From assembly GCA_028819075.1 (NCBI GenBank), contig JAPPMM010000037.1, positions 1 to 64,000 on the forward strand: a stretch of DNA of 64,000 nucleotides. The letters are read 5' to 3'. Of this stretch, positions 32,269 to 45,844 are shown in pieces. The position numbers were made by a program, and so were the translations under genes. The DNA comes from Gammaproteobacteria bacterium (GTDB lineage Bacteria; Gemmatimonadota; Gemmatimonadetes; Longimicrobiales; Gaopeijiaceae). How positions within the stretch are numbered: position 1 is the first letter of the stretch; each line of letters opens with the position of its first letter. The notes under the pieces are model-generated. The model worked only from the letters and a program-made list of their open reading frames with translations. It had not been told where the DNA came from and did not search any database.

Positions 32269-34695
32269 ATGAGTACACGGCGCATCGGGCAACTTGCGGA
32301 CAGCCGCCTCCGCGCCATCCGCACGCGTTTCGTTCATCGCTGGCACGCGGCACAGACGATTGGCGAGTGGTTCGGGAACGACGACGTGGGCTACCGCTTC
32401 GAGGACATCAACCACGCACGTTCTCTCACGGAGTACATCTGGCGCTACGGAGCGTTCGCTGAGTCGCCGGATGGCACTGGGCGAGTGCCTGTCGAGGACA
32501 CGCATAGCCTGAGGAGTATCCTTAGACCGGTCGCCAAGAATGGCCACAGCCATTTCGAGAAGGCCGTCCGCTGCGCCGCATTGTTCGGAGGCGATCACCA
32601 CCGTGCCACTGCGCGGCCGCTCTCGCCCTCGCAACACCGTCTGCTCCGGTACGCCTCGGAGAACCCCGATGTAGCTGAGTTCGCGGTCCGGCTCGTCGGA
32701 CTTCACCGTGCGATGCTCCTCTACTACACCCAAATGCGCTACCTGACGGCGGCTGAGGCCGAGCGCTACAGGAGGGAAGGCATCCCGGTGTTGGCACCCT
32801 TCGGCAACGCTGACGGCTCGCGAAGGGACCGGCCGGAACATGGCGAGGCGTTGGAAGCGCTCGATGGGGATCTGGTCATCGCGCTCAGGAACGTCTTTGC
32901 CCGGAACATCTACAATGCACTCGCGTGTCGCGCCCGGAGCGAACTGTTCGACACCGTCACACGCCATCCCGATGGGAACCGTATCGCGTCGGAGACGCTC
33001 GATCCTACCCAGACACATGGCGTCGGCCCCACGGTGGCAGTGGTACGGGGCAGACGAAGACGCTTCGTGGTCCGCGACGACGCGCTGGCCTCCATGCTGA
33101 GCAGCATCTCCGAAGCGCCGATGCCGGGACTCATCCGATTCTTGGCCGCCTTCAAAACGGCTGTCTCGACGATGATCACCGCGATGCCAGTGTTCATCGT
33201 CAAGAACTTCTTCCGCGATACCCTTGCAGGCTTCGTGGCGGGCCGGTACTGGCAGCTTCCCTTCCTCGGAACGCTTCTTGGCGGCCTGCATGCAATGCAC
33301 GACCTGGCCACTGCGAGATCGCGCCGCCTGCGCGAGTACCTGCTGCAAGGGGGCTTCTACTCGGGCTTGGTCGAATCGGAAGTCCATCTGGGGGACGTGC
33401 GGGGCGAGAACCGGGACACGATCCAAGGTGGGGCGGCTCGGCGACGATGGACCCGTTTCGTCTATGTGTTGACACGGCCCGCGTGGATCGCTGAAGCGGG
33501 CACCCGGGTCGATCAGTTCGAGAGAGCTCGGAGGGCGGGCGCCACGAACTACATGGCCGCCCGGGCCGCACGCATGGTCTCCGCCGACTTCGCCAACATC
33601 GGGTCGTCCCGGGGATGGCGAATGTACGTCCACACCGTCCCATTCCTGAACGCCGCGATCCAGGGCTTCGATCAGCTCTACCAGATCGTCCGGTTTCGCC
33701 AGCGTGCCGCGAAGAGCGCCCCGCGGTGGGGACATGAACGGAGACGCCATGTCGTCAAGACGTTCGCATCGGGACTCTGCCTGTCGCTGCTGGCCGCAGC
33801 GGGCTGGTCGCACAACGATCTCTGGAACGCGCGGCGCGCCGAATACCAGAATCAGACCGATTACGAGAAGGCGTCCTGGGTGACGCTATACGATGCGTGG
33901 GGCGACACGGACCTCCGAATTCCGGTTCCCTTTCAGATCGGTGCCGTGTTCGTCAAGCTGCCCGAGGTCGCGTTGGACCTCGCGTTCGGAAGCGGCACGC
34001 AAGCGGGACCGAAGTTCGTCTGGTCGTTGATTCACGGCAACCTTGCGGTGGGTTGGATTCCGGCCGTCGCGCAGCCCTTCGTCGAGGTCCGCACCAACCG
34101 CAACTTCTTCGGGGAGGAGATCATCCCCGCCTACATGATGTACTGGCCCGCCGAGGAACGGTATTTCCACCGCAGCACTCCGCTGCCGTACCGGGCCATC
34201 GGATCAGGGCTGGGCGTGTCGCCGTTGCACGTCCAGACTTTCGTGCGAGGATGGACGGGCCATCTTGGCAACGCGGTGGTGGCGGTATTCGACGAGGAGG
34301 TGATGTGGGATACGAGGCGCAACGGCCCCAAGCCTTTTCCGAAGACCGCGCGTCTCCTGACCGGAGTCCACAGCCTGCAACCAACAAGACCGAGGACGTT
34401 CACGCGCACCAGCAACGAATTCTACGAACTGGCCGATTGGCTGGACCGACAGATCGCCGGGGCGTCCCGGAATCGTGCTCGAATCCCGGTAGCCATCCGC
34501 CGTGCGGACAATCGGAGCGAGCGAGCCCAGCGGCAAGCGTCACGCCTTCGCCGTCGAGGGGATGAGGCCCGCATCGACAGAAGCCTTACGGCCGGGCAAA
34601 AGGAGCGGCGGATTCAAGACCTGTACACCCGCATCGATGCGGTCCTGCGCGAAGCGCTTCCGACGATGCAACGAGCTTGGGAGTCCGCGCGATAG
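32269..34695 (+). CDS. LPD38-like polyvalent-protein domain protein
   Basis: An 808-residue soluble-looking protein. Several blocks match what I recall of the large polyvalent protein-associated domain 38 from phages and mobile elements: 'VKNFFRDTLAGFVAGR', 'RMVSADFANIGSSRG', 'VPFLNAAIQGFDQLYQ', 'NRNFFGEEIIP' and 'LGVSPLHVQTFVRGWTGHLG'. The C-terminus is a basic helical tail. In phages such domains sit in giant multi-domain proteins that are injected with DNA. Here it is a stand-alone gene at the head of the cargo. A decayed second copy lies at 36474-37686. The biochemical role is unknown, and the family assignment is from memory of motifs, not a profile search. Confidence 0.6.
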   Translation: MSTRRIGQLADSRLRAIRTRFVHRWHAAQTIGEWFGNDDVGYRFEDINHARSLTEYIWRYGAFAESPDGTGRVPVEDTHSLRSILRPVAKNGHSHFEKAVRCAALFGGDHHRATARPLSPSQHRLLRYASENPDVAEFAVRLVGLHRAMLLYYTQMRYLTAAEAERYRREGIPVLAPFGNADGSRRDRPEHGEALEALDGDLVIALRNVFARNIYNALACRARSELFDTVTRHPDGNRIASETLDPTQTHGVGPTVAVVRGRRRRFVVRDDALASMLSSISEAPMPGLIRFLAAFKTAVSTMITAMPVFIVKNFFRDTLAGFVAGRYWQLPFLGTLLGGLHAMHDLATARSRRLREYLLQGGFYSGLVESEVHLGDVRGENRDTIQGGAARRRWTRFVYVLTRPAWIAEAGTRVDQFERARRAGATNYMAARAARMVSADFANIGSSRGWRMYVHTVPFLNAAIQGFDQLYQIVRFRQRAAKSAPRWGHERRRHVVKTFASGLCLSLLAAAGWSHNDLWNARRAEYQNQTDYEKASWVTLYDAWGDTDLRIPVPFQIGAVFVKLPEVALDLAFGSGTQAGPKFVWSLIHGNLAVGWIPAVAQPFVEVRTNRNFFGEEIIPAYMMYWPAEERYFHRSTPLPYRAIGSGLGVSPLHVQTFVRGWTGHLGNAVVAVFDEEVMWDTRRNGPKPFPKTARLLTGVHSLQPTRPRTFTRTSNEFYELADWLDRQIAGASRNRARIPVAIRRADNRSERAQRQASRLRRRGDEARIDRSLTAGQKERRIQDLYTRIDAVLREALPTMQRAWESAR

Positions 34696-34839: not shown

Positions 34840-35883
34840 ATGAGAAGTCGCGACTTGGATCCGTACGAAGTCCTCGGCCTCGAAGAAGGGGCAACCTGGG
34901 AAGAGGTCCGGACGGCATATCGACGCCTGGCCAAGAAGCACCACCCCGACAAGAATCCAGGAGACAAGGCCTCTGAGTGGATCTTCAAACAGGTCGGCGA
35001 AGCTTACGAGCGCCTTCTTAGGTCCATCGAAGGGACGCGATCCCGGCGGCGGGAAGATCACAAGCATCGAGGACCGCAAGGCCCCCGACAACAACAACGC
35101 GAGCCGCAACAACGCGCGGAACATGATCGCCGAGCGCGTGAGCAGCGGGACAAAGAGCGGGCGCGAACTTCGCGCGACCAGCAAGACTCACAGCGCTCAC
35201 CGAGGACTTCCCACAGCGGCATCGGAGGTAACGGGCGGGCCGCTGGCCGGCGACATAGAGAATGGTTCTTAGCAATTCCGGCTGGATTGGTTGTGGCCGC
35301 AACGGTATTGGCAGCAAGAGAAGGATTCCGCGATGGAACGAACAACGCCGAGCCTGCTGTTGTGCACGACCGTGGTTCTTCCGCTGCGCCAAGGCAAAGC
35401 ACCCAACGCGATGAGCCGCTCGACACAGCGCGAATCCGCCGCTTCATGGAAGCGCGGGGTTTCTCCCCCGTCGAGATCGAGGAGGGGATCCAACGCGGCG
35501 ATCGCGCGCGTGCACGCGATCAGGTGACGGACGCGACCCCTTGGCCCCGGGCCGCGGAGCCTGTGAGCGGAGAGTTCGGCCAAACCCCCGCAGGGGGAGT
35601 GTACGGACGCGCGTATGGTGAGGAGCTTGCGTCCCAGCCAGCCACGGAGGAACTCCACTTCGAAATGCCTCCGCCCGGCACCGACCTGATCCTGTCCCTT
35701 CCGCAACTGAGGTGGTGCCTACGCGAGGATCGAATGATCGAGAGCTACCGTCCCAACGTATCGAGCGAATGGGATCATGATGCCTTCAACCGAGTACTGG
35801 ACCGCTACAATAATCGCTGCGGCAGTTTCCGATACCGGCAAGGGGATCTGGAGCGCGCAAGGCGCGAAGTAGGGGGACGGTAG
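34840..35883 (+). CDS. Membrane-anchored J-domain (DnaJ-like) protein
   Basis: The 347-residue protein opens with a canonical J domain (residues 6-60) with the H35-P36-D37 tripeptide needed to stimulate Hsp70 ATPase. A basic Gln/Arg-rich linker follows, then one membrane helix at about 142-159 ([18 protein letters not shown]) and a C-terminal domain at about 284-345 with C293 and C327. A near-identical C-terminal domain ends the protein encoded at 43859-45844. The positive-inside rule puts the J domain in the cytoplasm and the two-cysteine domain outside, where a disulfide could form. It probably recruits the element's own Hsp70 to the membrane. Confidence 0.85.
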
Positions 35884-36473: not shown

Positions 36474-37686
36474 GCGGCGCGAATGGTCTCCTCCGATTTC
36501 GCGAACATCGGTTCGTCGCGGGGCTGGCGGATGTACGTCCGCACCGTTCCGTTCCCGAACGCGGCGATCCAGGGGCTCGACCCGCTCTATCAGATCTTCC
36601 GCAGGCCGCGGCGAAGCGACCCGGCGATACCGCCGAGCAGCGTGCCCACATCCGCAAGGTGAGTTGGTCGGGGGCGTACCTGGCCGCCCTGCCGTGCGTC
36701 ACCTGGACGTTCAACGGACTCCACTCGCGCGCGCGAACTGGCTTATCGAGGGGAGACTGACTACGAGAGGGCGTCTGGGGTTACGCTCTACGATGTCGCT
36801 GGAGACGCGGACCTTCGGATCTCCGTCCCGTTTCAGATCGGGGCCGCGTTCATCAAGCTCCCCGCGGTCGCGTTGGACCTCGTCGCCGGAAGGGAACGTT
36901 GGCGGGGCTGAAGTTCGTCTGGTCGCTGGTCCACGGGAACCTCGCCGTCGGCTGGATCCCGGCCGTCGCCCAGCCGATCTTCGAGATCCGGACCAACCGC
37001 AACTCCTTCGGCGACGAGATCATTCCCCCTACATGGCCAACTGGCCAGCGGAACGCCGGTACTTCGACCGGTCCACTCCCCTGCCGTATGGCGGCGTGGG
37101 TGCGGCGCTCAACGTCTCCCCGCTGCATGTCCAAACCATCGTGCGGGGTTGGACCGGGCACCTCGGCAACGCGGCGGTTGTCGCGCTGGACGAAGCAATG
37201 TGGAACGAGCGGGTGAACGGGCCGAAGCCCTTTCCCAAGACTGCCCGGCTTCTTACGGGAATCTACAGCCTGCAACCTCCGAGGCCCCGGACCTATACCC
37301 GGTTCGGAAACGAGTTCTACGCCATCTCCGATTGGGCCGAGGGATATGCGCGGTCGGGCGCGTGCTCTGCCTCCAACCGCAATCGGCGCGTTCCCGCCGT
37401 GTGCCGTGCTCGCACCGTAGCCGGACGCGTACGACGGGAGGCTGCCGAACTTCGGCGTCAGGGGGACGACATTCGCACGGTCATCTTCCGGAGCCGTAGG
37501 GCGAAGGAGCGTGAACTGGAAGTCCTGTACGAGCAAATCGACGCGCAGTTCCGGCTGGTGCTGCCGGAACTGCGTGGGCTACGTAGGCGGGAGTTCGAAC
37601 TGGTGGACGCCCCGACGAGCGTTTCCTCCGACCGTAGGACCCGTCCGACACGGCCTCGTCGCCCGGCACGGCCACGACGGCGTTGA
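36474..37686 (+). pseudogene. Decayed second copy of the LPD38-like gene
   Basis: Reading through at least three frame changes recovers the C-terminal half of the 32269-34695 protein. The pieces are 'ARMVSSDFANIGSSRGWRM', 'VPFPNAAIQGLDPLYQI', 'ASGVTLYDVAGDADLRI', 'KFVWSLVHGNLAVGWIP' and 'LNVSPLHVQTIVRGWTGHLG', and a basic tail. The 5' half is missing. The copy diverges by many substitutions, so it is an old duplicate or a separately acquired relative. Frame errors from sequencing could add to but not explain the 5' loss. Confidence 0.8.
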
Positions 37687-37813: not shown

Positions 37814-39004
37814 ATGAGTGATTCAGGTCGGCGAGCGGCGCCATTCCGATGGCTGCTCGCGGCTACGCTCCTAGTGGTGTGCACGTTTGCGATGGATCCG
37901 TTCGGGCTGGTCGGTCAGCCGGTAGTAGGTCCTCTGGCTCGGTCCGACGTGGCGTCGCACTCGGTACCGATGCCAGCCCAACCACGTGACACGCTCGATG
38001 TTCTGCTGGAGCGGGTTCGGTCGCTTGAGACCGAAGTCGACGCCTTGCGCGCCGCCAGTGACTCTGCGCAGGTCCGCTACGCGGCGCTGGACAGCACTCT
38101 CACGCAAGAACGCCGTCTCTTCGTCGAGGAGCTGGCGGCGTTGCGGCAGAGCCTGATCCCGCTGATGGATTCGGTGGCGGCATACACCGCGGACGCGGTT
38201 CGGGTCGAATTGGCAAACGGGCTTCGCTCTATTCGTTCCGAGTATGTGCGCGGACGCGAAGCGCTGATGGCCCAAGTCGAGGGAACTGAGCGGTCGCTGG
38301 ACGCGCTCGAAGCGCGGCTCGGCTCGTGGGAGCCCGAGGTGCGAGACAGCCTGACTGCAACGGCGGGCAGGATCCAGTTGGAGCGGCAAGAGAGGCAAGC
38401 TGCGGACGGCCGGAGTCGGTTCCTTCTGGCGATTGCGACCGGACTCCTGGTGGTCGGGATTGCGGTGGTGTGGTGGAGTGGGCGGAGGCGGATTGCTGCG
38501 GTCCAACAACGGGTGGCGAGCCCCACAACGGTGGATGAGCGAATTGAGGAGGTCCGGCGAGAGTTGGGGGTGGAGGTCGGGCGCGAAGGTCAGCGGCTTC
38601 TGGAAGAGCAGTTGAAGCCGTTGGAAGGAATCAGCCGAATGTTGGCGAAGATCAGCGACGCGAGCGGGGGTGCCGCACCGGATCACGACTTGGCTCTGGG
38701 CGTCTGCAACGAAGTGAACCGAATCGAGAAGAATCTGGCAGCGATGGACGCGTCCGTGAGGGGCCACCGGCAGCTTTCCGGTTGCGTCCGGCGAGTGAAG
38801 GAGAACCTGCGGGTCCACCGCTACGACATCACGGAACTGCTTGGCAGGGACTACGACGGCGGGATGCACGTCGAGGCGGACTTCGTGGAAGACGAGGACC
38901 TGACACCGGGCCGTCAGGTGATAACGCGCATCAATAGGCCGGAGGTGCGCTACGCGGACAAGATCATTCAGAACGCATCGGTAAAGGTCTCGGTAGGATT
39001 CTAA
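37814..39004 (+). CDS. Membrane protein with GrpE-like C-terminal domain
   Basis: The 396-residue protein has membrane segments at about 13-33 and 202-222 (FLLAIATGLLVVGIAVVWW), separated by a long coiled coil. A cytoplasmic C-terminus at about 290-396 contains a helical part and a beta-wing like that of GrpE (DYDGGMHVEADFVED, then RYADKIIQNASVKVSVGF). GrpE is the nucleotide-exchange factor of Hsp70. The gene lies 12 bases upstream of the Hsp70 gene, and GGAG precedes the ATG. With two membrane spans, the coiled coil would be outside and the GrpE-like part inside. This would be a transmembrane exchange factor, an unusual form. The GrpE assignment rests on fold-level resemblance and context. 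Confidence 0.6.
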   Translation: MSDSGRRAAPFRWLLAATLLVVCTFAMDPFGLVGQPVVGPLARSDVASHSVPMPAQPRDTLDVLLERVRSLETEVDALRAASDSAQVRYAALDSTLTQERRLFVEELAALRQSLIPLMDSVAAYTADAVRVELANGLRSIRSEYVRGREALMAQVEGTERSLDALEARLGSWEPEVRDSLTATAGRIQLERQERQAADGRSRFLLAIATGLLVVGIAVVWWSGRRRIAAVQQRVASPTTVDERIEEVRRELGVEVGREGQRLLEEQLKPLEGISRMLAKISDASGGAAPDHDLALGVCNEVNRIEKNLAAMDASVRGHRQLSGCVRRVKENLRVHRYDITELLGRDYDGGMHVEADFVEDEDLTPGRQVITRINRPEVRYADKIIQNASVKVSVGF

Positions 39005-39016
39005 CCCCAAGGACAA

Positions 39017-41563
39017 ATGGCATCGGATCGAATCGACTACGGCATCGACCTCGGCACCACGAACTCGGTCATCGCGCGAATGGTGCGCGGTGAGCCTACC
39101 GTTGTCAGGAGCAACCGGTACGCCAGCGACACGACTCCCAGCGCGGTGGCCTTTGGACGCAGGGGGAGAATCCGCGTGGGAAAGTTGGCGTACACCCAGT
39201 TGAACAGGGACCGTCTTCACGCGCTGAAACAAGACGACCCGGACTTCCGGAACGTCTTCATCGAGTTCAAGAGAACGATGGGCACCGACCACGTGGACTC
39301 CCCGAGCGTGGACCCATCGATCCCCTTCACCTCTGAAGAGCATTCCGCCGAGATTCTCAAGGAACTCAGGCGTTCCGTTGTGGACGCATCGGTTGATGCG
39401 GCCGTTGTGACCATTCCGGCAGCATTCACGGTGCGACAGCAGCAGGCCACGCAGCGGGCGGCCGAGCTTGCGGGTCTCCGCCAATGCCATCTTCTCCAGG
39501 AACCCGTTGCGGCTGCGATGGCGTTTGGGTTGCAGACGGGCGAGGCGGACGAGAAATGGCTCGTCTTCGACTTCGGCGGCGGCACGTTCGACGCAGCGCT
39601 GGTCCTCGTCGAGGATGGCGTGATCACCGTAAGCGACACTGAAGGGGACAACTACCTCGGAGGCAAAGATCTGGACCGGGCGATCGTCGAACGGATCCTT
39701 CTGGAAGAGGTGGCCCAAGAGCACGACATCCACAGCTACATCGCGGAGGTCCCGGCTCGCAAGGAGTTGCTCCGGGACGCACTCATGACGTGGGCCGAGC
39801 AAGCCAAGAACGCCCTCAGCTCTCAAGAGTCGCATTGGGTAGAGTCCGATCTCAATGACATCACCCTGGCGAACGGAGACCAAATCGAACTCTGGTTCGA
39901 ACTCACGCAGGAACGCCTTCGCCCGGTGGTCGAGCCTCTGTTCCAGCGCGCCATCGACAAGGCGAAGACGCTCCTGAATCGTCATGGGCTTCAAGGTCCC
40001 GATCTTGACGAACTGATCCTCGTGGGCGGACCAACCTATTCGCCGATCCTCCGCGAAATGCTCGCCCATCAGATCCGCGCACCGAATACGTCGGTGGACC
40101 CCATGACGGTTGTAGCGCGCGGAGCTGCACTCTTTGCGAGCACCCGCCCGATCAAGGACCACGGAGCCGACAAGCCTTCGGTGGCCGTCCGTCTCGACCT
40201 GGGCTATGAAGCCACCACCGTCTCACACGACGAATTCGTCACTGTCAAGTGCCGGGATCTGGCCGACCTCCGTCGATTCGGGCAGCTCGAAGTCGAATTC
40301 GAGAGAAAGGAGACCGGGTGGAGCAGCGGCAGGCGGGCACTCGGCGAGGATGGTGCTCTATTCGAAGTCAAGCTAGAGGAGGGGCGGCCAAACGTCTTCG
40401 ATATCGTCGTGACCACGCCTCGCGGGGATCGCGTTGAGACCCACCCGAGTGAAATCACCATCTTGCAGGGTACGAAGGTGGGCGGCTCGCCGCTGACCAA
40501 CAGCTTGGGCGTCGCGGTGGAGGGTGAGGAGTATCTGTTCTTCCACCCCATGAAGGGTGCGGAAAAGGGCATGCCGCTACCGGTCACCGGAAAGCGAACA
40601 GGGCTGGCGACCAAGGAACAGATCAGGCCCGGCGTTTCATCAGATGGCTTGCTGATTCTGGTCTACGAGGGTGGTGTTGATGCGGTGGGAGTACCGGTTG
40701 CGCTCTGTCATCATGTGGAGGACTTCGAACTCACGGGAGATCAGGTGAACCGGGTAATCCCGAAGGGAAGCACGTTCGACTTGACGGTTGTCACTGGAGC
40801 AACCAGCAACGTACCGGAGACAGTGCGCGTCCTGTTCCCGGGACTCGATGACGAGGAATACGGACTCGTCATTCCCAGCAAGGGTTCGGCTGAACAGACC
40901 GGCTGGATCGACATCGAGCTTGCTGAGGCGCAGAAGCGAATCGGACGGATGCGGGTGCGCGGCGAGGTGGACGAAGAGACAATCGACTCGCTTGAAGCGA
41001 AGATTGTCGATGCCGCGGCCGGTGTTCGTCAGGCAGGTAGCGACCGAGGTGATCGGGATCAGGCGGTCGCGCTGCTCAAGGAGGCCCTTCGCGGGCTGTA
41101 CGGTCTCGTCGACGAATGGTCGGAGGCAGATGCCCATTTGGACGAGGCGTGGACGAACCTCACAGGGGCCAAGTCGGCGGGCGGATGCCCCAAGTGCGGG
41201 TCCGTCCTTTCCGATGCGCAGATGAGCGAGCTGGAACAGAAGCTCCGTCAGGTGAAGCAGGCGCACGATGTGTCCCTCGCTCGCCAGCTTGCCCAAGACA
41301 TGGAACACGCTTTCGTCTACCTGATGCGCTGCGAGTGGTCCAAGCAGATCATAAGCTGGGCGCGCGTGAACTTTCACCAAATCCAGTGGAAAGACACTGC
41401 GTCGGCGCGGATGGCTCTAGACGGGGGCCTTCGTGCGATTATGGGTGGGGAGCCCTGCCACGAACTGCTCGAATCTGGGAGGCGCATTCTGGACCTACAG
41501 GAACGAGGACCGGGCGATGGCAGCTCGCCGCAAGGCCCGCAACCCCCGGTCTTGAGCCTCTGA
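39017..41563 (+). CDS. Hsp70-family (DnaK-like) ATPase
   Basis: The 848-residue protein has the Hsp70 nucleotide-binding domain. The phosphate-1 motif is 'YGIDLGTTNSVIARM', the phosphate-2 motif 'VFDFGGGTFDAALV' and the adenosine motif LILVGGPTYSPIL. A diverged substrate-binding region follows at about 400-640, then a C-terminal extension with a single CPKC near residue 725 and long helices. It is longer than housekeeping DnaK (about 640) and its lid region is different, so it is a specialised paralogue. AAGGA precedes the ATG. It is coupled downstream to the kinase-AAA+ gene by a TGATG overlap and preceded by the GrpE-like gene, forming the core of the cargo. Confidence 0.9.
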   Translation: MASDRIDYGIDLGTTNSVIARMVRGEPTVVRSNRYASDTTPSAVAFGRRGRIRVGKLAYTQLNRDRLHALKQDDPDFRNVFIEFKRTMGTDHVDSPSVDPSIPFTSEEHSAEILKELRRSVVDASVDAAVVTIPAAFTVRQQQATQRAAELAGLRQCHLLQEPVAAAMAFGLQTGEADEKWLVFDFGGGTFDAALVLVEDGVITVSDTEGDNYLGGKDLDRAIVERILLEEVAQEHDIHSYIAEVPARKELLRDALMTWAEQAKNALSSQESHWVESDLNDITLANGDQIELWFELTQERLRPVVEPLFQRAIDKAKTLLNRHGLQGPDLDELILVGGPTYSPILREMLAHQIRAPNTSVDPMTVVARGAALFASTRPIKDHGADKPSVAVRLDLGYEATTVSHDEFVTVKCRDLADLRRFGQLEVEFERKETGWSSGRRALGEDGALFEVKLEEGRPNVFDIVVTTPRGDRVETHPSEITILQGTKVGGSPLTNSLGVAVEGEEYLFFHPMKGAEKGMPLPVTGKRTGLATKEQIRPGVSSDGLLILVYEGGVDAVGVPVALCHHVEDFELTGDQVNRVIPKGSTFDLTVVTGATSNVPETVRVLFPGLDDEEYGLVIPSKGSAEQTGWIDIELAEAQKRIGRMRVRGEVDEETIDSLEAKIVDAAAGVRQAGSDRGDRDQAVALLKEALRGLYGLVDEWSEADAHLDEAWTNLTGAKSAGGCPKCGSVLSDAQMSELEQKLRQVKQAHDVSLARQLAQDMEHAFVYLMRCEWSKQIISWARVNFHQIQWKDTASARMALDGGLRAIMGGEPCHELLESGRRILDLQERGPGDGSSPQGPQPPVLSL

Positions 41564-43347
41564 TGACCATCCGAACACGGACTCATCCCATCCCCGGATG
41601 GCGCGTCGTCGGTTCCGTCAAGCAGGCGGCAAATGCCGACACCTACCGGGTTGCGGACGACCGGGGCAACCGAGCCTTCCTGAAGGTGTTCCATCCGGAT
41701 CGCATCCCGGAACACCGTATCGGCACTGGAGGCAAGCTCCTCGAAGTCATGATCTTGGAATCTCTGCACCACGCCCGCGTACCGTCGGTCATCGAGTCGG
41801 GCGTGCTGGAAGGGGACAAGCGCCCGTATCTGCTGACCGAACTCATTCCGGGCGAGACTTTGGACCATCGACTCCAGCGCGAATTCGCACTCCGCACGGC
41901 TCCAGCCAAACTTCTCCTGGAGGCCCTACTGCGCGTTGTCGCCTACCTGCACGGACTTGACGATCCAGTAGTCCACAACGAGTTAGTCCCCTCGAACGTT
42001 GTACTGGACGGCCGCGACGAACGACCCTTCGTCATCGACTTCGGTCACGCCAGACGGATTAGCGACGGCAATCCTCCGCACCCGTCGGCCATCGATCCGT
42101 ATTACCTCCCCAACGAGTGCTATGAGGGTGGCGTATCCACACCCGCGAGCGATGTCTTCGCCCTCGGGGCCATCTACTTCCGCACCCTCTTCGGGATGCC
42201 TCCTTGGGACCTGCGCACGACCGAACCCGTCCGAGGCGACCTTCGCGAAGCACTCCAGAATGCACGGTCGAAGCCCTTGGCGGTTCCAGCGCGCACACTC
42301 GGCGGCGAGATCGACCCCCACACCTTGGCCGCAATCAAGAAGGCGTTGAGTCTTCGCCCCGAAGACCGGTTCCGCGATGCGGGGGCATTCCTCGCCGAGC
42401 TTACCCGCGAGTCGGCGTCAGATCGCCCCGCCGTTGGTGGTCAACCCACCGGTCGAACAGATACCACTGGTCCAGCCCGCTCCCTTCAGCTGGAACCCCT
42501 GAGACCTGTCGCTCCGCTACACCTCGGTTTCGCTGCGGTCGGCGGAATGGCCGAGATGAAGCGCACACTGACGGAAGAAGTCATCGGCCCGCTCCGCGAC
42601 CCTGCTCGGTACACCAAGCTCGGCCTTGGCATCCCTAACGGACTCCTGCTCTATGGCCCCCCCGGGTGCGGCAAGACATTCCTTGCGGAGCGATTCGGAG
42701 AGGAACTCGGGTACGCGTTCCGCAAGGTCACGCCCGCCGACGTGGCAAGCATCTACATCCATGGCACGCAGGAGAGGATCGCCAGTCTGTTCGACCGGGC
42801 CCGGAAGGACGCGCCCTGCGTACTTTTCCTTGACGAGGTCGACGCGATGATCCCGTCTCGTGAGCAATCGATCCACCATGGATACGCTAGCGAGGTCAAC
42901 GAGTGGTTGGCGCAGATGGACGAGTGCGGCAGAACCGGGGTTTTCGTACTCGCGGCCAGCAACCAGCCCGACCGCATTGACGCCGCCATCCGGCGCTCTG
43001 GACGGTTCGACAAGATTGCCTATGTCGGCCCCCCGGACCAAGACGCGCGCGCGGCGATCTTCGCGATCCACCTGAATGGACGTCCCTTGGACCCGGCCGT
43101 CGATTACGACGAACTCGCCCGTCTCACCAAAGGGCGGGTCGGGAGCGACATCAAGTTCCTGGCGGACGAGGCCGCTCGCGAAGTGTTGAGGACCGGAGAC
43201 GACGAGATCCACATGGAGCACCTCCGGAGCGCGATTCGGCGAAACGGGCCATCTGTCGGGGAGGAAGACTTGGCTCGGTACGAGCGGATGCACCGCAAGT
43301 TCGAGAGGGGGCGAGCGGGGGAGAAGCCAAAACGAATCGGGTTTTGA
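41563..43347 (+). CDS. Protein kinase-like domain fused to a FtsH/p97-type AAA+ ATPase
   Basis: The 594-residue protein starts at an ATG overlapping the Hsp70 stop. Residues 1-285 are a Ser/Thr kinase fold: beta-3 Lys in AFLKVFHP, catalytic loop HNELVPSN in place of HRDLKPxN, and DFG intact in VIDFGHAR. The catalytic Asp is thus Glu and the following Lys is Val, so activity may be weak or lost. Residues 330-590 are an AAA+ module with Walker A G365PPGCGKT, Walker B FLDEVD (D424, E425) and an arginine-rich sensor/RRSGRFD region like FtsH or Cdc48. It may act as an unfoldase or remodeller gated by the kinase-like domain. Confidence 0.85.
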   Translation: MTIRTRTHPIPGWRVVGSVKQAANADTYRVADDRGNRAFLKVFHPDRIPEHRIGTGGKLLEVMILESLHHARVPSVIESGVLEGDKRPYLLTELIPGETLDHRLQREFALRTAPAKLLLEALLRVVAYLHGLDDPVVHNELVPSNVVLDGRDERPFVIDFGHARRISDGNPPHPSAIDPYYLPNECYEGGVSTPASDVFALGAIYFRTLFGMPPWDLRTTEPVRGDLREALQNARSKPLAVPARTLGGEIDPHTLAAIKKALSLRPEDRFRDAGAFLAELTRESASDRPAVGGQPTGRTDTTGPARSLQLEPLRPVAPLHLGFAAVGGMAEMKRTLTEEVIGPLRDPARYTKLGLGIPNGLLLYGPPGCGKTFLAERFGEELGYAFRKVTPADVASIYIHGTQERIASLFDRARKDAPCVLFLDEVDAMIPSREQSIHHGYASEVNEWLAQMDECGRTGVFVLAASNQPDRIDAAIRRSGRFDKIAYVGPPDQDARAAIFAIHLNGRPLDPAVDYDELARLTKGRVGSDIKFLADEAAREVLRTGDDEIHMEHLRSAIRRNGPSVGEEDLARYERMHRKFERGRAGEKPKRIGF

Positions 43348-43364
43348 CTGGAGGTTCTACAGCG

Positions 43365-43862
43365 ATGAGCGCCCACCCCTTGCTTGCCTACTACCTGCGA
43401 GTCGCCTACGGCTGCATGGCCTGCGACGGCGACATCGATCCGTCCGAGGTCTCCTGCCTGCGTTCCATCGCGGTTCAAATGGGCCAACCTGTCGCCGAAG
43501 TGGACGCGACGCTCGCATCTATCCGCGAGGAGTTCTCCAAAGACCCTCGTGGCATGGTGGAACAGGCGTGGAACCGACTCCAGGCCACAGGGCTGCAGCA
43601 CGGCGACGCCCTCCTGCTTCTCGACATGCTGGTCCAGTTGGTCGAAGCCGACGGAGAGATTCGTCCCAACGAGACCCAGTTCGTCCGCGACTTGGTACAC
43701 GCGCTCGCGCTCGACCTGGCGAAGCTCCGTCAGGAGCATCCTGAGTGGCGTCCCTATCTCGCCGAAGTACTTCGCCCCGGCCCCGATCCGAGCTGGGCAA
43801 AGGCCCTGGCCGATGACTTCGGCGAATTGCCCGAGATCACTTTGGAGAAGCCGTCCAAGTGA
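43365..43862 (+). CDS. TerB-like protein
   Basis: The 165-residue alpha-helical protein shows the two-repeat TerB pattern of acidic 'DGDIDPSE' and 'DGEIRPNE' motifs after helices (CMACDGDIDPSEVSCLRS, QLVEADGEIRPNETQFV). TerB domains are linked to tellurite resistance gene clusters, membrane complexes and phage defence. GGAGG precedes the ATG at 43365. The stop overlaps the next gene's GTG start by four bases, so the product is made with the J-like membrane protein. Confidence 0.78.
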   Translation: MSAHPLLAYYLRVAYGCMACDGDIDPSEVSCLRSIAVQMGQPVAEVDATLASIREEFSKDPRGMVEQAWNRLQATGLQHGDALLLLDMLVQLVEADGEIRPNETQFVRDLVHALALDLAKLRQEHPEWRPYLAEVLRPGPDPSWAKALADDFGELPEITLEKPSK

Positions 43863-45844
43863 TCCTCGACAACCCGTTTCACGTCCTCGGCCTGTTGGCC
43901 GACTGTGGCGCCCGCGAGAAGGCACGGCGGGAAGCCCGGACCAAGGCGTATCTGACGATTGGGCAGCCGCTAGTCTTTCAGGACGACCTCTATTTTCAGG
44001 GTTGCCGACGTAATCAGGCCACCGTCGAGCGGGCGCTGTCGCAGTTGAATGATGCGCGAGACCGCATCGGGTACGGTCTGTTTTGGTTTACCGAAGGCGG
44101 TGTCCTCGACGGCCATGCATTGCCGAAACTCAGGCAGGGCAATCTGCAAGGCGCGCTCGCCGCATGGCAACGCATTGAAGACCGTCTCCCGACCCGCAAT
44201 TACGCTTCCTGCCTGAACAACCTCGGGACACTGTACCTCCTGATGGCCCTGAGCGGACCTGGGTCCGGCGAGCGCTGGCCGCACGCCTCGAAGGAACGTG
44301 TCGCGTATCTTGAACGCGGGATGCGGCTAAAGGCGCGCCTGGTTGGAATGCTCGGCGAACCGGAGTTGGCGGATTTCTGCCGCACCTTCAGCGACGGCCT
44401 TGTAGTCCGTGACTCGCAAGCGATTGTCACGGCTTTCGGGCGGTCCTTTTTCGAGACGATTGCCGAGGCCGAGAAGTATGGGATTGAGGTTGGCGCGGCG
44501 GCGATCGTTCAGATCCTGGAGTCCGGTGGTCCTCGAACGGCCGAGTTGACGGAAAAGCTGGTGTTGGAAGGCCGGGAGGCCGTCCAACGTGCGATCAATA
44601 CCTGTGCCACGGCGTACGAACACGACCCGTCACAGGCTGCGGCAGCCGCTGAGCAACTGATGGCCGTGACTCACGATAAGCTCCCGGAGTTCGCTGCGCT
44701 GGTTTCCAAGACCGACATCAGGTATACGTCGATCGCCGACCAGACTGCGGCGGCGATTCTGGACGCGGATGTCACTTACTTCAACTGGCGCTCCAAGACT
44801 GGGGAAATGTCGCAGGATGCGCTCAAGGCGTCGCTGCTATTGGCTGAGTACGCCGCCGAAATCGCCTGCGGAGCTGCGCTTCGACAACGGGCGCGGGAAA
44901 ACGTCGAAACTACTAGGCGCTTCGTCACTGAGCGCGAGCAGGTGGAGGCGATGTCGGGCGTCCGAGAAGGGATGGGAAGGTGGCTTGAGCGTGCCAACGA
45001 GATGGCGCGGAAGAAGCCCATCCCCCGCCACCGAATAGCATTTGCGGAAATTGCCCTCAAGAGATCCGCTGGAGTGCCAACGTCCGCGCTCGACTTGATG
45101 GAGGCGGTGCGGCTTCAGGGCATCAAGGCGTTTGGACCGAGCTTCCCACGAAGCGAAGAGATGGTCGGTCTAGGTTCGCTGGTTTGTCAGGTCCTGATGG
45201 GTTGTGTGATATCAGCCCACAACGACTCTTCCCAGCAATCGGAGAGAATCAGCGCAGCACGGATCCTTCAGGGCCTCCCGACACACTTCCAAGCCGTTTC
45301 CGGACCCTCGAACCGATCAGCCAATGCCCGTGTCCGCCACTACGTTGCCGACAGTGATGGTGCCGTCCACCCATCCCAGTTCCTCGTAAGTGACGAGTGC
45401 TTCCGGCGCCTGATGGAAAACGTCCAACTCAGCAGGACGACTGCCATTGCCACCTCCACTGCGAGTACTGCGAGCGGATCGGGACGCGGGTGTGCCCTGA
45501 CAGCGCTCGGCGGGATAGTCACCTTGGTTGTCCTTTCTCTGGCCGTCGATGCGGGCAGCGGACCCTCAGCTAGTAGCCCAGGTGCTGCGGCCGGGACCAG
45601 TCCTTTGGACTTCCGGGTCCCACCGGTCGCGGAAGGACGCGTGCTTTCCATGCCCGAACTACGGTGGTGCGTACGGGAGGATCGGCGAATCGAGCGCGAG
45701 CGTCTCGTGCCCGCGACCTCTCAGGCGGATGTCGACCGTTTCAACAGCCGCGTGGACAACTACAATTCGCGCTGTAGCAACTTTCGCTATCGCCCGGGGG
45801 ACCTGGAACGGGCGAGACGGGAAGTCGGAGCCGGTAGCCGGTAG
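43859..45844 (+). CDS. Membrane protein with degenerate J-like N-terminus and shared two-Cys C-terminal domain
   Basis: The 661-residue protein starts at a GTG overlapping the TerB-like stop. Residues 1-60 begin NPFHVLGLLADCGAREKARR, resembling the first helices of a J domain (compare [19 protein letters not shown]) but lacking HPD. A long helical, TPR-like middle follows. One membrane helix lies at about 540-560 (ALGGIVTLVVLSLAV) and the C-terminal domain (LSMPELRWCVREDRRIE, C604 and C639) matches the element's J-domain protein. It looks like a partner or decoy J-type protein that binds the chaperone without stimulating its ATPase. The function is inferred. Confidence 0.7.
   Translation: MILDNPFHVLGLLADCGAREKARREARTKAYLTIGQPLVFQDDLYFQGCRRNQATVERALSQLNDARDRIGYGLFWFTEGGVLDGHALPKLRQGNLQGALAAWQRIEDRLPTRNYASCLNNLGTLYLLMALSGPGSGERWPHASKERVAYLERGMRLKARLVGMLGEPELADFCRTFSDGLVVRDSQAIVTAFGRSFFETIAEAEKYGIEVGAAAIVQILESGGPRTAELTEKLVLEGREAVQRAINTCATAYEHDPSQAAAAAEQLMAVTHDKLPEFAALVSKTDIRYTSIADQTAAAILDADVTYFNWRSKTGEMSQDALKASLLLAEYAAEIACGAALRQRARENVETTRRFVTEREQVEAMSGVREGMGRWLERANEMARKKPIPRHRIAFAEIALKRSAGVPTSALDLMEAVRLQGIKAFGPSFPRSEEMVGLGSLVCQVLMGCVISAHNDSSQQSERISAARILQGLPTHFQAVSGPSNRSANARVRHYVADSDGAVHPSQFLVSDECFRRLMENVQLSRTTAIATSTASTASGSGRGCALTALGGIVTLVVLSLAVDAGSGPSASSPGAAAGTSPLDFRVPPVAEGRVLSMPELRWCVREDRRIERERLVPATSQADVDRFNSRVDNYNSRCSNFRYRPGDLERARREVGAGSR

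What the first reader, a model, noticed from the sequence alone, without database searches (positions are those of the whole stretch)
43859..45844. Shared C-terminal two-cysteine domain on HPD-containing and HPD-lacking J-type proteins
J protein residues 286-345 and J-like protein residues 596-658 align as LSxPxLRWCxREDRxIE ... [29 protein letters not shown], with cysteine spacing of 34 and 35. Both follow a single membrane helix, so the domain should be outside, where the cysteines could pair. One partner keeps HPD, the other has lost it, suggesting a stimulator/antagonist pair acting on one Hsp70.
Basis: partly seen in the sequence, partly recalled or inferred. Interest (0 to 1): 0.6.

Follow-up and report, generated by a model that had tools for sequence, protein, structure and literature searches.

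The report
Periplasmic tag of a mobile Hsp70 operon
The small two-cysteine domain shared by these two proteins is the membrane-outside tag of a mobile gene cluster, usually found among bacterial anti-phage genes, whose Hsp70 chaperone and J-like partner have both lost the contact by which Hsp70s are normally switched on.

Summary
The two proteins share a C-terminal domain of about 62 residues (63% identity; Cys spacings 34 and 35). AlphaFold predicts a confident three-helix fold (pLDDT 90) with no PDB match. Both cysteines are invariant in 52 of 52 copies, and 23 of 39 relatives with a long tail carry a peptidoglycan-binding domain after it, so the domain is periplasmic.

The stimulator/antagonist reading is not supported. 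In every assessable locus found with this domain (55 of 55) an Hsp70 operon lies beside it: typically GrpE-like exchange factor, Hsp70, AAA+ ATPase and HPD-less J-like protein. Thirty of 30 genomes tested carry one copy of the domain. The HPD-bearing partner occurs only in the window's species (two genomes) and is absent from a complete sister operon. All 52 operon Hsp70s keep the ATPase residues but have lost the arginine that HPD contacts (R167) and the VLLLD linker: a loss matching that of HPD.

Operon neighbourhoods are rich in known anti-phage genes compared with control regions of the same genomes. Best reading: an envelope-anchored, J-uncoupled Hsp70-AAA machine, probably for phage defence. 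Function is untested; no matching description was found in PADLOC 2023, Pfam, NCBIfam or the papers searched.

The parts
34840..35883 (+). J protein: HPD-bearing J domain, one TM helix, low-complexity linker, C-terminal two-cysteine domain; found only in the window's species
34858..35016 (+). J domain with HPD (PF00226)
35692..35874 (+). two-cysteine domain of the J protein (residues 285-345)
43859..45844 (+). J-like protein: HPD-less J-like N-terminus, long helical middle, TM helix, C-terminal two-cysteine domain
43859..44098 (+). HPD-less J-like domain (NPFHVLGL ... ARDRIGYGLFWF)
   Evidence: profile-profile match of the family to J domains, score 30.7 against a maximum of 16.6 in 100 column shuffles
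45491..45547 (+). transmembrane helix of the J-like protein (residues 545-563)
45644..45832 (+). two-cysteine domain of the J-like protein (residues 596-658); predicted three-helix bundle
39017..41563 (+). operon Hsp70: intact ATPase motifs; H at the R167 position, Q at N170, no VLLLD linker, divergent C-terminal half
41563..43347 (+). kinase-like domain (HRD replaced by HNE) fused to an FtsH/CDC48-type AAA+ ATPase
43344..43862 (+). TerB-fold protein, resembling the TerB part of DjlA; overlaps the genes on both sides
37814..39004 (+). two hydrophobic segments flanking a coiled coil, then a C-terminal domain weakly matching the operon's GrpE-like exchange factor
   Evidence: score 26.1 against a shuffled maximum of 18.5
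32269..34695 (+). LPD38 polyvalent-protein gene (PF18857, 2.3e-27)
36474..37575 (+). second, frame-shifted LPD38 copy lying next to the operon; the J gene sits between the two copies

Best explanation
The shared domain is the periplasmic anchor module of a conserved, mobile, membrane-linked Hsp70-AAA+ operon. Shown by sequence: the operon encodes a small GrpE-like exchange factor, an Hsp70 with an intact ATPase site, an AAA+ ATPase (in most members), an HPD-less J-like protein with a long helical region, and a single-pass membrane protein whose outer part is the two-cysteine domain, often followed by a peptidoglycan-binding domain. In the window's clade the J-like part and the anchor are one protein. 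Inferred: the Hsp70 is an ATP switch held at the inner membrane by the J-like scaffold. Because HPD and its arginine receptor are both missing, the J-like domain docks Hsp70 without triggering hydrolysis the usual way. The periplasmic domain (probably disulfide-bonded) fixes the complex to, or senses, the cell wall, and an envelope event such as phage entry is passed inward to Hsp70 and the AAA+ unfoldase. The likely role is phage defence. The HPD protein of the window is a lineage-specific extra that carries the same anchor; if active it more likely brings in the housekeeping DnaK than stimulates the operon Hsp70.
For: Hsp70 beside the domain in 55 of 55 assessable loci; the other 7 are cut by a contig end. 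One copy of the domain per genome in 30 of 30 genomes. Both further hits among 397 other Pseudomonadota genomes lie in the same operon. HPD-less J-like protein throughout; homology to J domains by profiles. GrpE homology of the small gene: score 41.6 against a shuffled maximum of 15.9. Hsp70: D8, T11, K70, P143, E171, D194, T199 and D201 in 52 of 52; R167 lost in 52 of 52; N170 to Q in 52 of 52; no VLLLD-like linker in 52 of 52. Role of R167 as HPD contact: PMC7289447, PMC8215388. Periplasmic side: PG_binding_1 in 23 of 39. Defence islands: 161 PADLOC families at 1e-10 or better among 117 neighbour genes against 28 among 117 control genes; neighbours include Shango SngB/SngC, Hachiman HamB, Hma and type IIG RM at 1e-180 to 0, control families shown no better than 2e-67. 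Mobility: relaxase, MobC and integrase beside the window operon, plasmids and a Tn7-like element.
Against: No functional data. Island residence is guilt by association; several operons also sit near ordinary genes. The J-like model is low-confidence and gave no significant PDB match. Net-charge counts around the TM helix were inconclusive (32 proteins against 27). The window's J-like protein has a second hydrophobic stretch that, if it spans the membrane, would put its domain inside. The collection scan used a short pattern, so remote uses of the domain outside the operon could be missed. Whether loss of R167 occurs in other divergent Hsp70s was not surveyed. About a quarter of loci, mainly the alphaproteobacterial branch, show no AAA+ gene.
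Confidence: 0.6

Rival explanations
1. One reading: a Pam18/Pam16-like pair. The HPD protein stimulates and the HPD-less protein restrains one Hsp70, the two held together by their shared outer domains.
For: Both are predicted membrane proteins with the same outer domain in one gene neighbourhood. Pam16 is a precedent for a degenerate J-like domain that binds a J protein and cannot stimulate Hsp70 (PMC5773037). The window Hsp70 has H at the R167 position, and R167H in DnaK suppresses DnaJ D35N (PMC7289447), so some J contact is conceivable.
Against: HPD partner absent from relatives outside the window's species, including a complete sister operon. Hsp70 lacks R167, N170, Y145 and the linker.
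Confidence: 0.12
2. The operon is an envelope stress or protein-quality machine (like DjlA/DjlC-HscC) carried as cargo on mobile elements, not a defence system.
For: Hsp70, exchange factor and AAA+ are the parts of a chaperone machine; the TerB protein resembles DjlA; DjlB/DjlC are membrane J proteins of HscC (PMC8215388).
Against: Strong concentration of known defence genes around the operon relative to the same genomes; rare, patchy distribution.
Confidence: 0.25
3. The domain is a general periplasmic wall-binding module with no special tie to Hsp70; the two window proteins picked it up separately.
For: It is fused to peptidoglycan-binding domains in many relatives.
Against: It was found only in Hsp70 operons (55 of 55) and not in phage records. 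All domain copies of the window's clade group together with support 0.96.
Confidence: 0.05

Closest known systems
Mitochondrial import motor Pam18/Pam16-mtHsp70-Mge1 (PMC5773037)
   Same: Membrane-held Hsp70 with GrpE-type exchange factor and a degenerate J-like protein.
   Different: Pam16 works with a true J partner on a J-responsive Hsp70. Here the HPD partner is missing in nearly all operons, Hsp70 has lost the J-coupling residues, an AAA+ ATPase is usually present, and the outer domain is unrelated.
DjlA/DnaK and DjlB-DjlC/HscC membrane J systems of E. coli (PMC8215388)
   Same: J-type proteins held in the inner membrane; the window's TerB protein resembles the TerB part of DjlA.
   Different: Those have true J domains and act on J-stimulated Hsp70s (PMC8215388); as far as I know none has the two-cysteine outer domain or a linked AAA+ gene.
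CoCoNuT systems with Hsp70-like CnuD (PMC11090510)
   Same: Hsp70-like protein inside a candidate defence operon.
   Different: CnuD goes with McrBC-type GTPases and is predicted to hydrolyse ATP very poorly. Here ATPase residues are fully kept and no McrB/McrC was seen in the conserved core.
IetAS and other AAA+ defence ATPases (PADLOC IetA)
   Same: The AAA+ part matches IetA models.
   Different: Hsp70, exchange factor and J-like partner are the constant neighbours instead of an IetS-type protease.

Membership tests
J-domain proteins (PF00226) | Recognisable J domain with HPD motif, J protein 34840-35883 | tested here: met
   PF00226 1.8e-17, HPD present
J-domain proteins (PF00226) | HPD motif, J-like protein 43859-45844 and its relatives | tested here: not met
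   No HPD in the J-like N-termini aligned; no Pfam hit
J-domain proteins (PF00226) | Homology of the J-like N-terminus to J domains apart from HPD | tested here: met
   hhalign score 30.7, prob. 80.6%; 100 shuffles max 16.6, reversed 7.8
J-responsive Hsp70 (DnaK type) | ATPase residues | tested here: met
   52 of 52
J-responsive Hsp70 (DnaK type) | R167 (HPD contact), N170 and VLLLD linker | tested here: not met
   Lost in 52 of 52
GrpE exchange factors (PF01025) | Pfam score over the curated cut-off | tested here: not met
   14.6 and 11.9 bits against 25.8
GrpE exchange factors (PF01025) | Profile match to the C-terminal (head) region of GrpE | tested here: met
   hhalign 41.6 against shuffled max 15.9
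Pam18/Pam16 pair | A J partner for the J-like protein, built alike, in each system | tested here: not met
   Absent from the G173 operon; no second copy of the domain in 30 of 30 other genomes
Pam18/Pam16 pair | J and J-like domains form a heterodimer | not testable with these tools
   No complex prediction available
Known anti-phage defence systems | Match to a described system in PADLOC 2.0.0 | tested here: not met
   Only generic kinase and IetA-type ATPase matches
Known anti-phage defence systems | Location in defence islands | tested here: met
   161 against 28 PADLOC families in paired samples
Known anti-phage defence systems | Protection from phage | not testable with these tools
   Needs an experiment

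The most novel reading that the evidence does not exclude
A so far undescribed family of envelope-anchored defence systems in which an Hsp70 and its J-like partner lost HPD and the HPD receptor together and became a J-independent, ATP-driven sensor or motor at the inner membrane, tied to the cell wall by a new two-cysteine domain and coupled to an AAA+ unfoldase.
Probability: 0.4. Interest if true: 0.85.

Novelty: new variant of a known kind. Interest (0 to 1): 0.66.

Why it matters
Hsp70s are taken to need an HPD J domain. Here a whole, widely transferred Hsp70 family appears to have dropped both halves of that contact while keeping a full ATPase site and its own exchange factor. That makes it testable how an Hsp70 can be run without J-domain triggering. 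If the operon is a defence system, it would add chaperones as core parts of a membrane-based immune machine, with a marker domain that makes the family easy to find.

Tried and rejected
A known Pfam or NCBIfam family for the domain: no hits. PDB and viral structure matches of the domain model: nothing below E about 1. PDB sequence matches for the domain, the J-like domain and the exchange factor: none credible. Whole J-like model against PDB: only weak helical-repeat hits, model too uncertain. Weak hits of the domain in other genomes of the window's phylum (E 4e-4 to 0.01) were treated as chance; most of the aligned matches lack a cysteine or the motif. G197 was a seeming exception: it holds only the second half of the domain, an LPD38-like stretch and no operon Hsp70, so it reads as a decayed remnant. 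Charge-based topology was inconclusive. Homogenisation of the two domain copies by recent gene conversion was considered: the DNA is well diverged and similarity ends just after the stop codons. Literature searches for Hsp70 in defence islands gave only CoCoNuTs and a DnaJ-dependent NLR-like protein as relevant.

Full report
OBSERVATION. The J protein (34840-35883, 347 aa) has a canonical J domain with HPD. The J-like protein (43859-45844, 661 aa) starts with a J-like stretch without HPD. They align over their last ~62 residues at 63% identity, with cysteines at 293/327 and 604/639. The domain is real, not chance: 56 loci in GTDB genomes encode it.

THE DOMAIN. An alignment of 52 copies has both cysteines in every row; 51 of 52 have no other cysteine in the core. 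AlphaFold2 with this alignment gives three helices, pLDDT 90, pTM 0.79. No solved or viral structure resembles it. In most relatives it follows one hydrophobic segment, and in 23 of the 39 with a long tail a peptidoglycan-binding domain is present, after the outer domain where I checked (L030); single cases have SH3_3 or cytochrome c. These are periplasmic partners, so the domain is outside. A disulfide is likely from location and invariance, but I could not measure the distance in the model.

THE OPERON. The neighbours of the domain are nearly constant. In 62 loci outside the window's species, 55 have an Hsp70 of about 840 aa within 10 kb, and the other seven are cut off by a contig end. Forty-three also have an AAA+ ATPase and at least 30 a ~118-aa gene directly before Hsp70. 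That small gene matches GrpE by profile comparison (41.6 against at most 15.9 for shuffled GrpE), though below Pfam's cut-off. A long protein with NPFxxLxxxxRDxRRxI...ARxxLTNPRxRLxAExxWLPG is the J-like component. Its profile matches a J-domain profile colinearly with the HPD stretch gapped (30.7 against at most 16.6 in 100 column shuffles). Either the outer domain is fused to it, as in the window, or it sits on a separate membrane protein beginning with a KGFAGLSSLVSD motif. Each of 30 genomes tested has exactly one copy of the domain.

THE WINDOW VARIANT. The order is LPD38 gene, J protein, broken LPD38 copy, coiled-coil membrane protein with an exchange-factor-like C-terminus, Hsp70, kinase-like/AAA+, TerB, J-like protein; the last four genes overlap or abut. 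G173, of the same family but another genus, has LPD38, coiled-coil protein, Hsp70, kinase-like/AAA+, TerB and J-like protein in one intact array with no J protein and one copy of the domain. G224, the same species as the window, has the J protein and a second, diverged copy of the operon. The J protein's domain groups with the window clade (support 0.96), so it is a lineage-specific addition, apparently tied to the LPD38 duplication (inference).

THE HSP70. Across 52 operon Hsp70s, eight catalytic positions (D8, T11, K70, P143, E171, D194, T199, D201) are invariant. R167, the arginine contacted by HPD (PMC7289447, PMC8215388), is A, S, G, H or T in all; N170 is Q in all; Y145 is A in 51; no VLLLD-like linker was found in any. 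Loss of HPD in the J-like proteins and loss of its receptor in Hsp70 go together. This is the strongest mechanistic clue and argues against an HPD stimulator acting on this Hsp70. One caution: the window clade has H at 167, and DnaK R167H suppresses DnaJ D35N (PMC7289447), so some J contact cannot be excluded there.

CONTEXT. The window operon lies beside MobC, relaxase and integrase genes. Relatives are on conjugative and mobilizable plasmids and beside Tn7-type transposition genes. To test island residence I took 117 neighbour genes (core genes removed) from 20 operon loci and 117 genes from 20 regions of the same genomes, called the same way. PADLOC families at 1e-10 or better: 161 against 28. 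Neighbours include Shango SngC and SngB, Hachiman HamB, HmaB/HmaC, a type IIG enzyme and HEC-05 with E from about 1e-180 to 0; of the control families shown the best is 2e-67. These are counts of families, not of genes, and one gene can match many related models. Pfam adds GmrSD, MmeI, BrxC/D and phage integrases, but also ordinary LysR and transport genes.

MECHANISM. Shown: composition, conservation, co-loss, periplasmic side, island context. Inferred: membrane scaffold without J triggering, wall anchoring or sensing by the domain, AAA+ as the remodelling effector, phage defence. I put about 0.6 on the overall picture and lower on the exact signal.

NOVELTY. No family in Pfam, NCBIfam, PHROGs or PADLOC 2023 covers the domain or the J-like protein, and the open-access papers searched describe nothing matching. 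Newer defence catalogues were not available here. I file it as a new variant of a known kind (Hsp70 machine), with a 0.4 chance of being a new defence family.

Noticed in passing
window 41563-43347: The kinase-like half of the AAA+ protein reads HNE where kinases have the catalytic HRD, in the window and in G173; it is probably a pseudokinase.
   Followed up: partly
window 32269-34695 and 36474-37575: Two LPD38 copies (71% DNA identity over 887 bases), the second frame-shifted, flank the J gene; an intact LPD38 gene also heads the operon in G173, so a polyvalent-protein domain seems to belong to this branch of the system.
   Followed up: partly
L100 (G224 contig 155): The window's species carries a second operon copy whose Hsp70 is 55% identical; its two-cysteine domain has a ~40-residue insertion between the cysteines.
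   Followed up: partly
L016, L032, L040, L042-L044: Some operons have a second KGFSGLSTLVSD-type membrane protein without a detected two-cysteine domain, a few genes downstream.
   Followed up: no
L037, L042, L044 and similar: In one branch the J-like protein begins with a zinc-ribbon-like stretch (CFKCGSxK...CxxC) before the J-like part.
   Followed up: no
L021 (JAPPJO010000153.1): This MAG is labelled Gammaproteobacteria, but it matches G224, the same species as the window genome, whose relative G173 is labelled Gemmatimonadetes; the label looks wrong.
   Followed up: no
L070:9608-10795: The region after the outer domain reads like a DUF1311/LprI lysozyme-inhibitor domain by eye (not confirmed by Pfam at 1e-4).
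   Followed up: no
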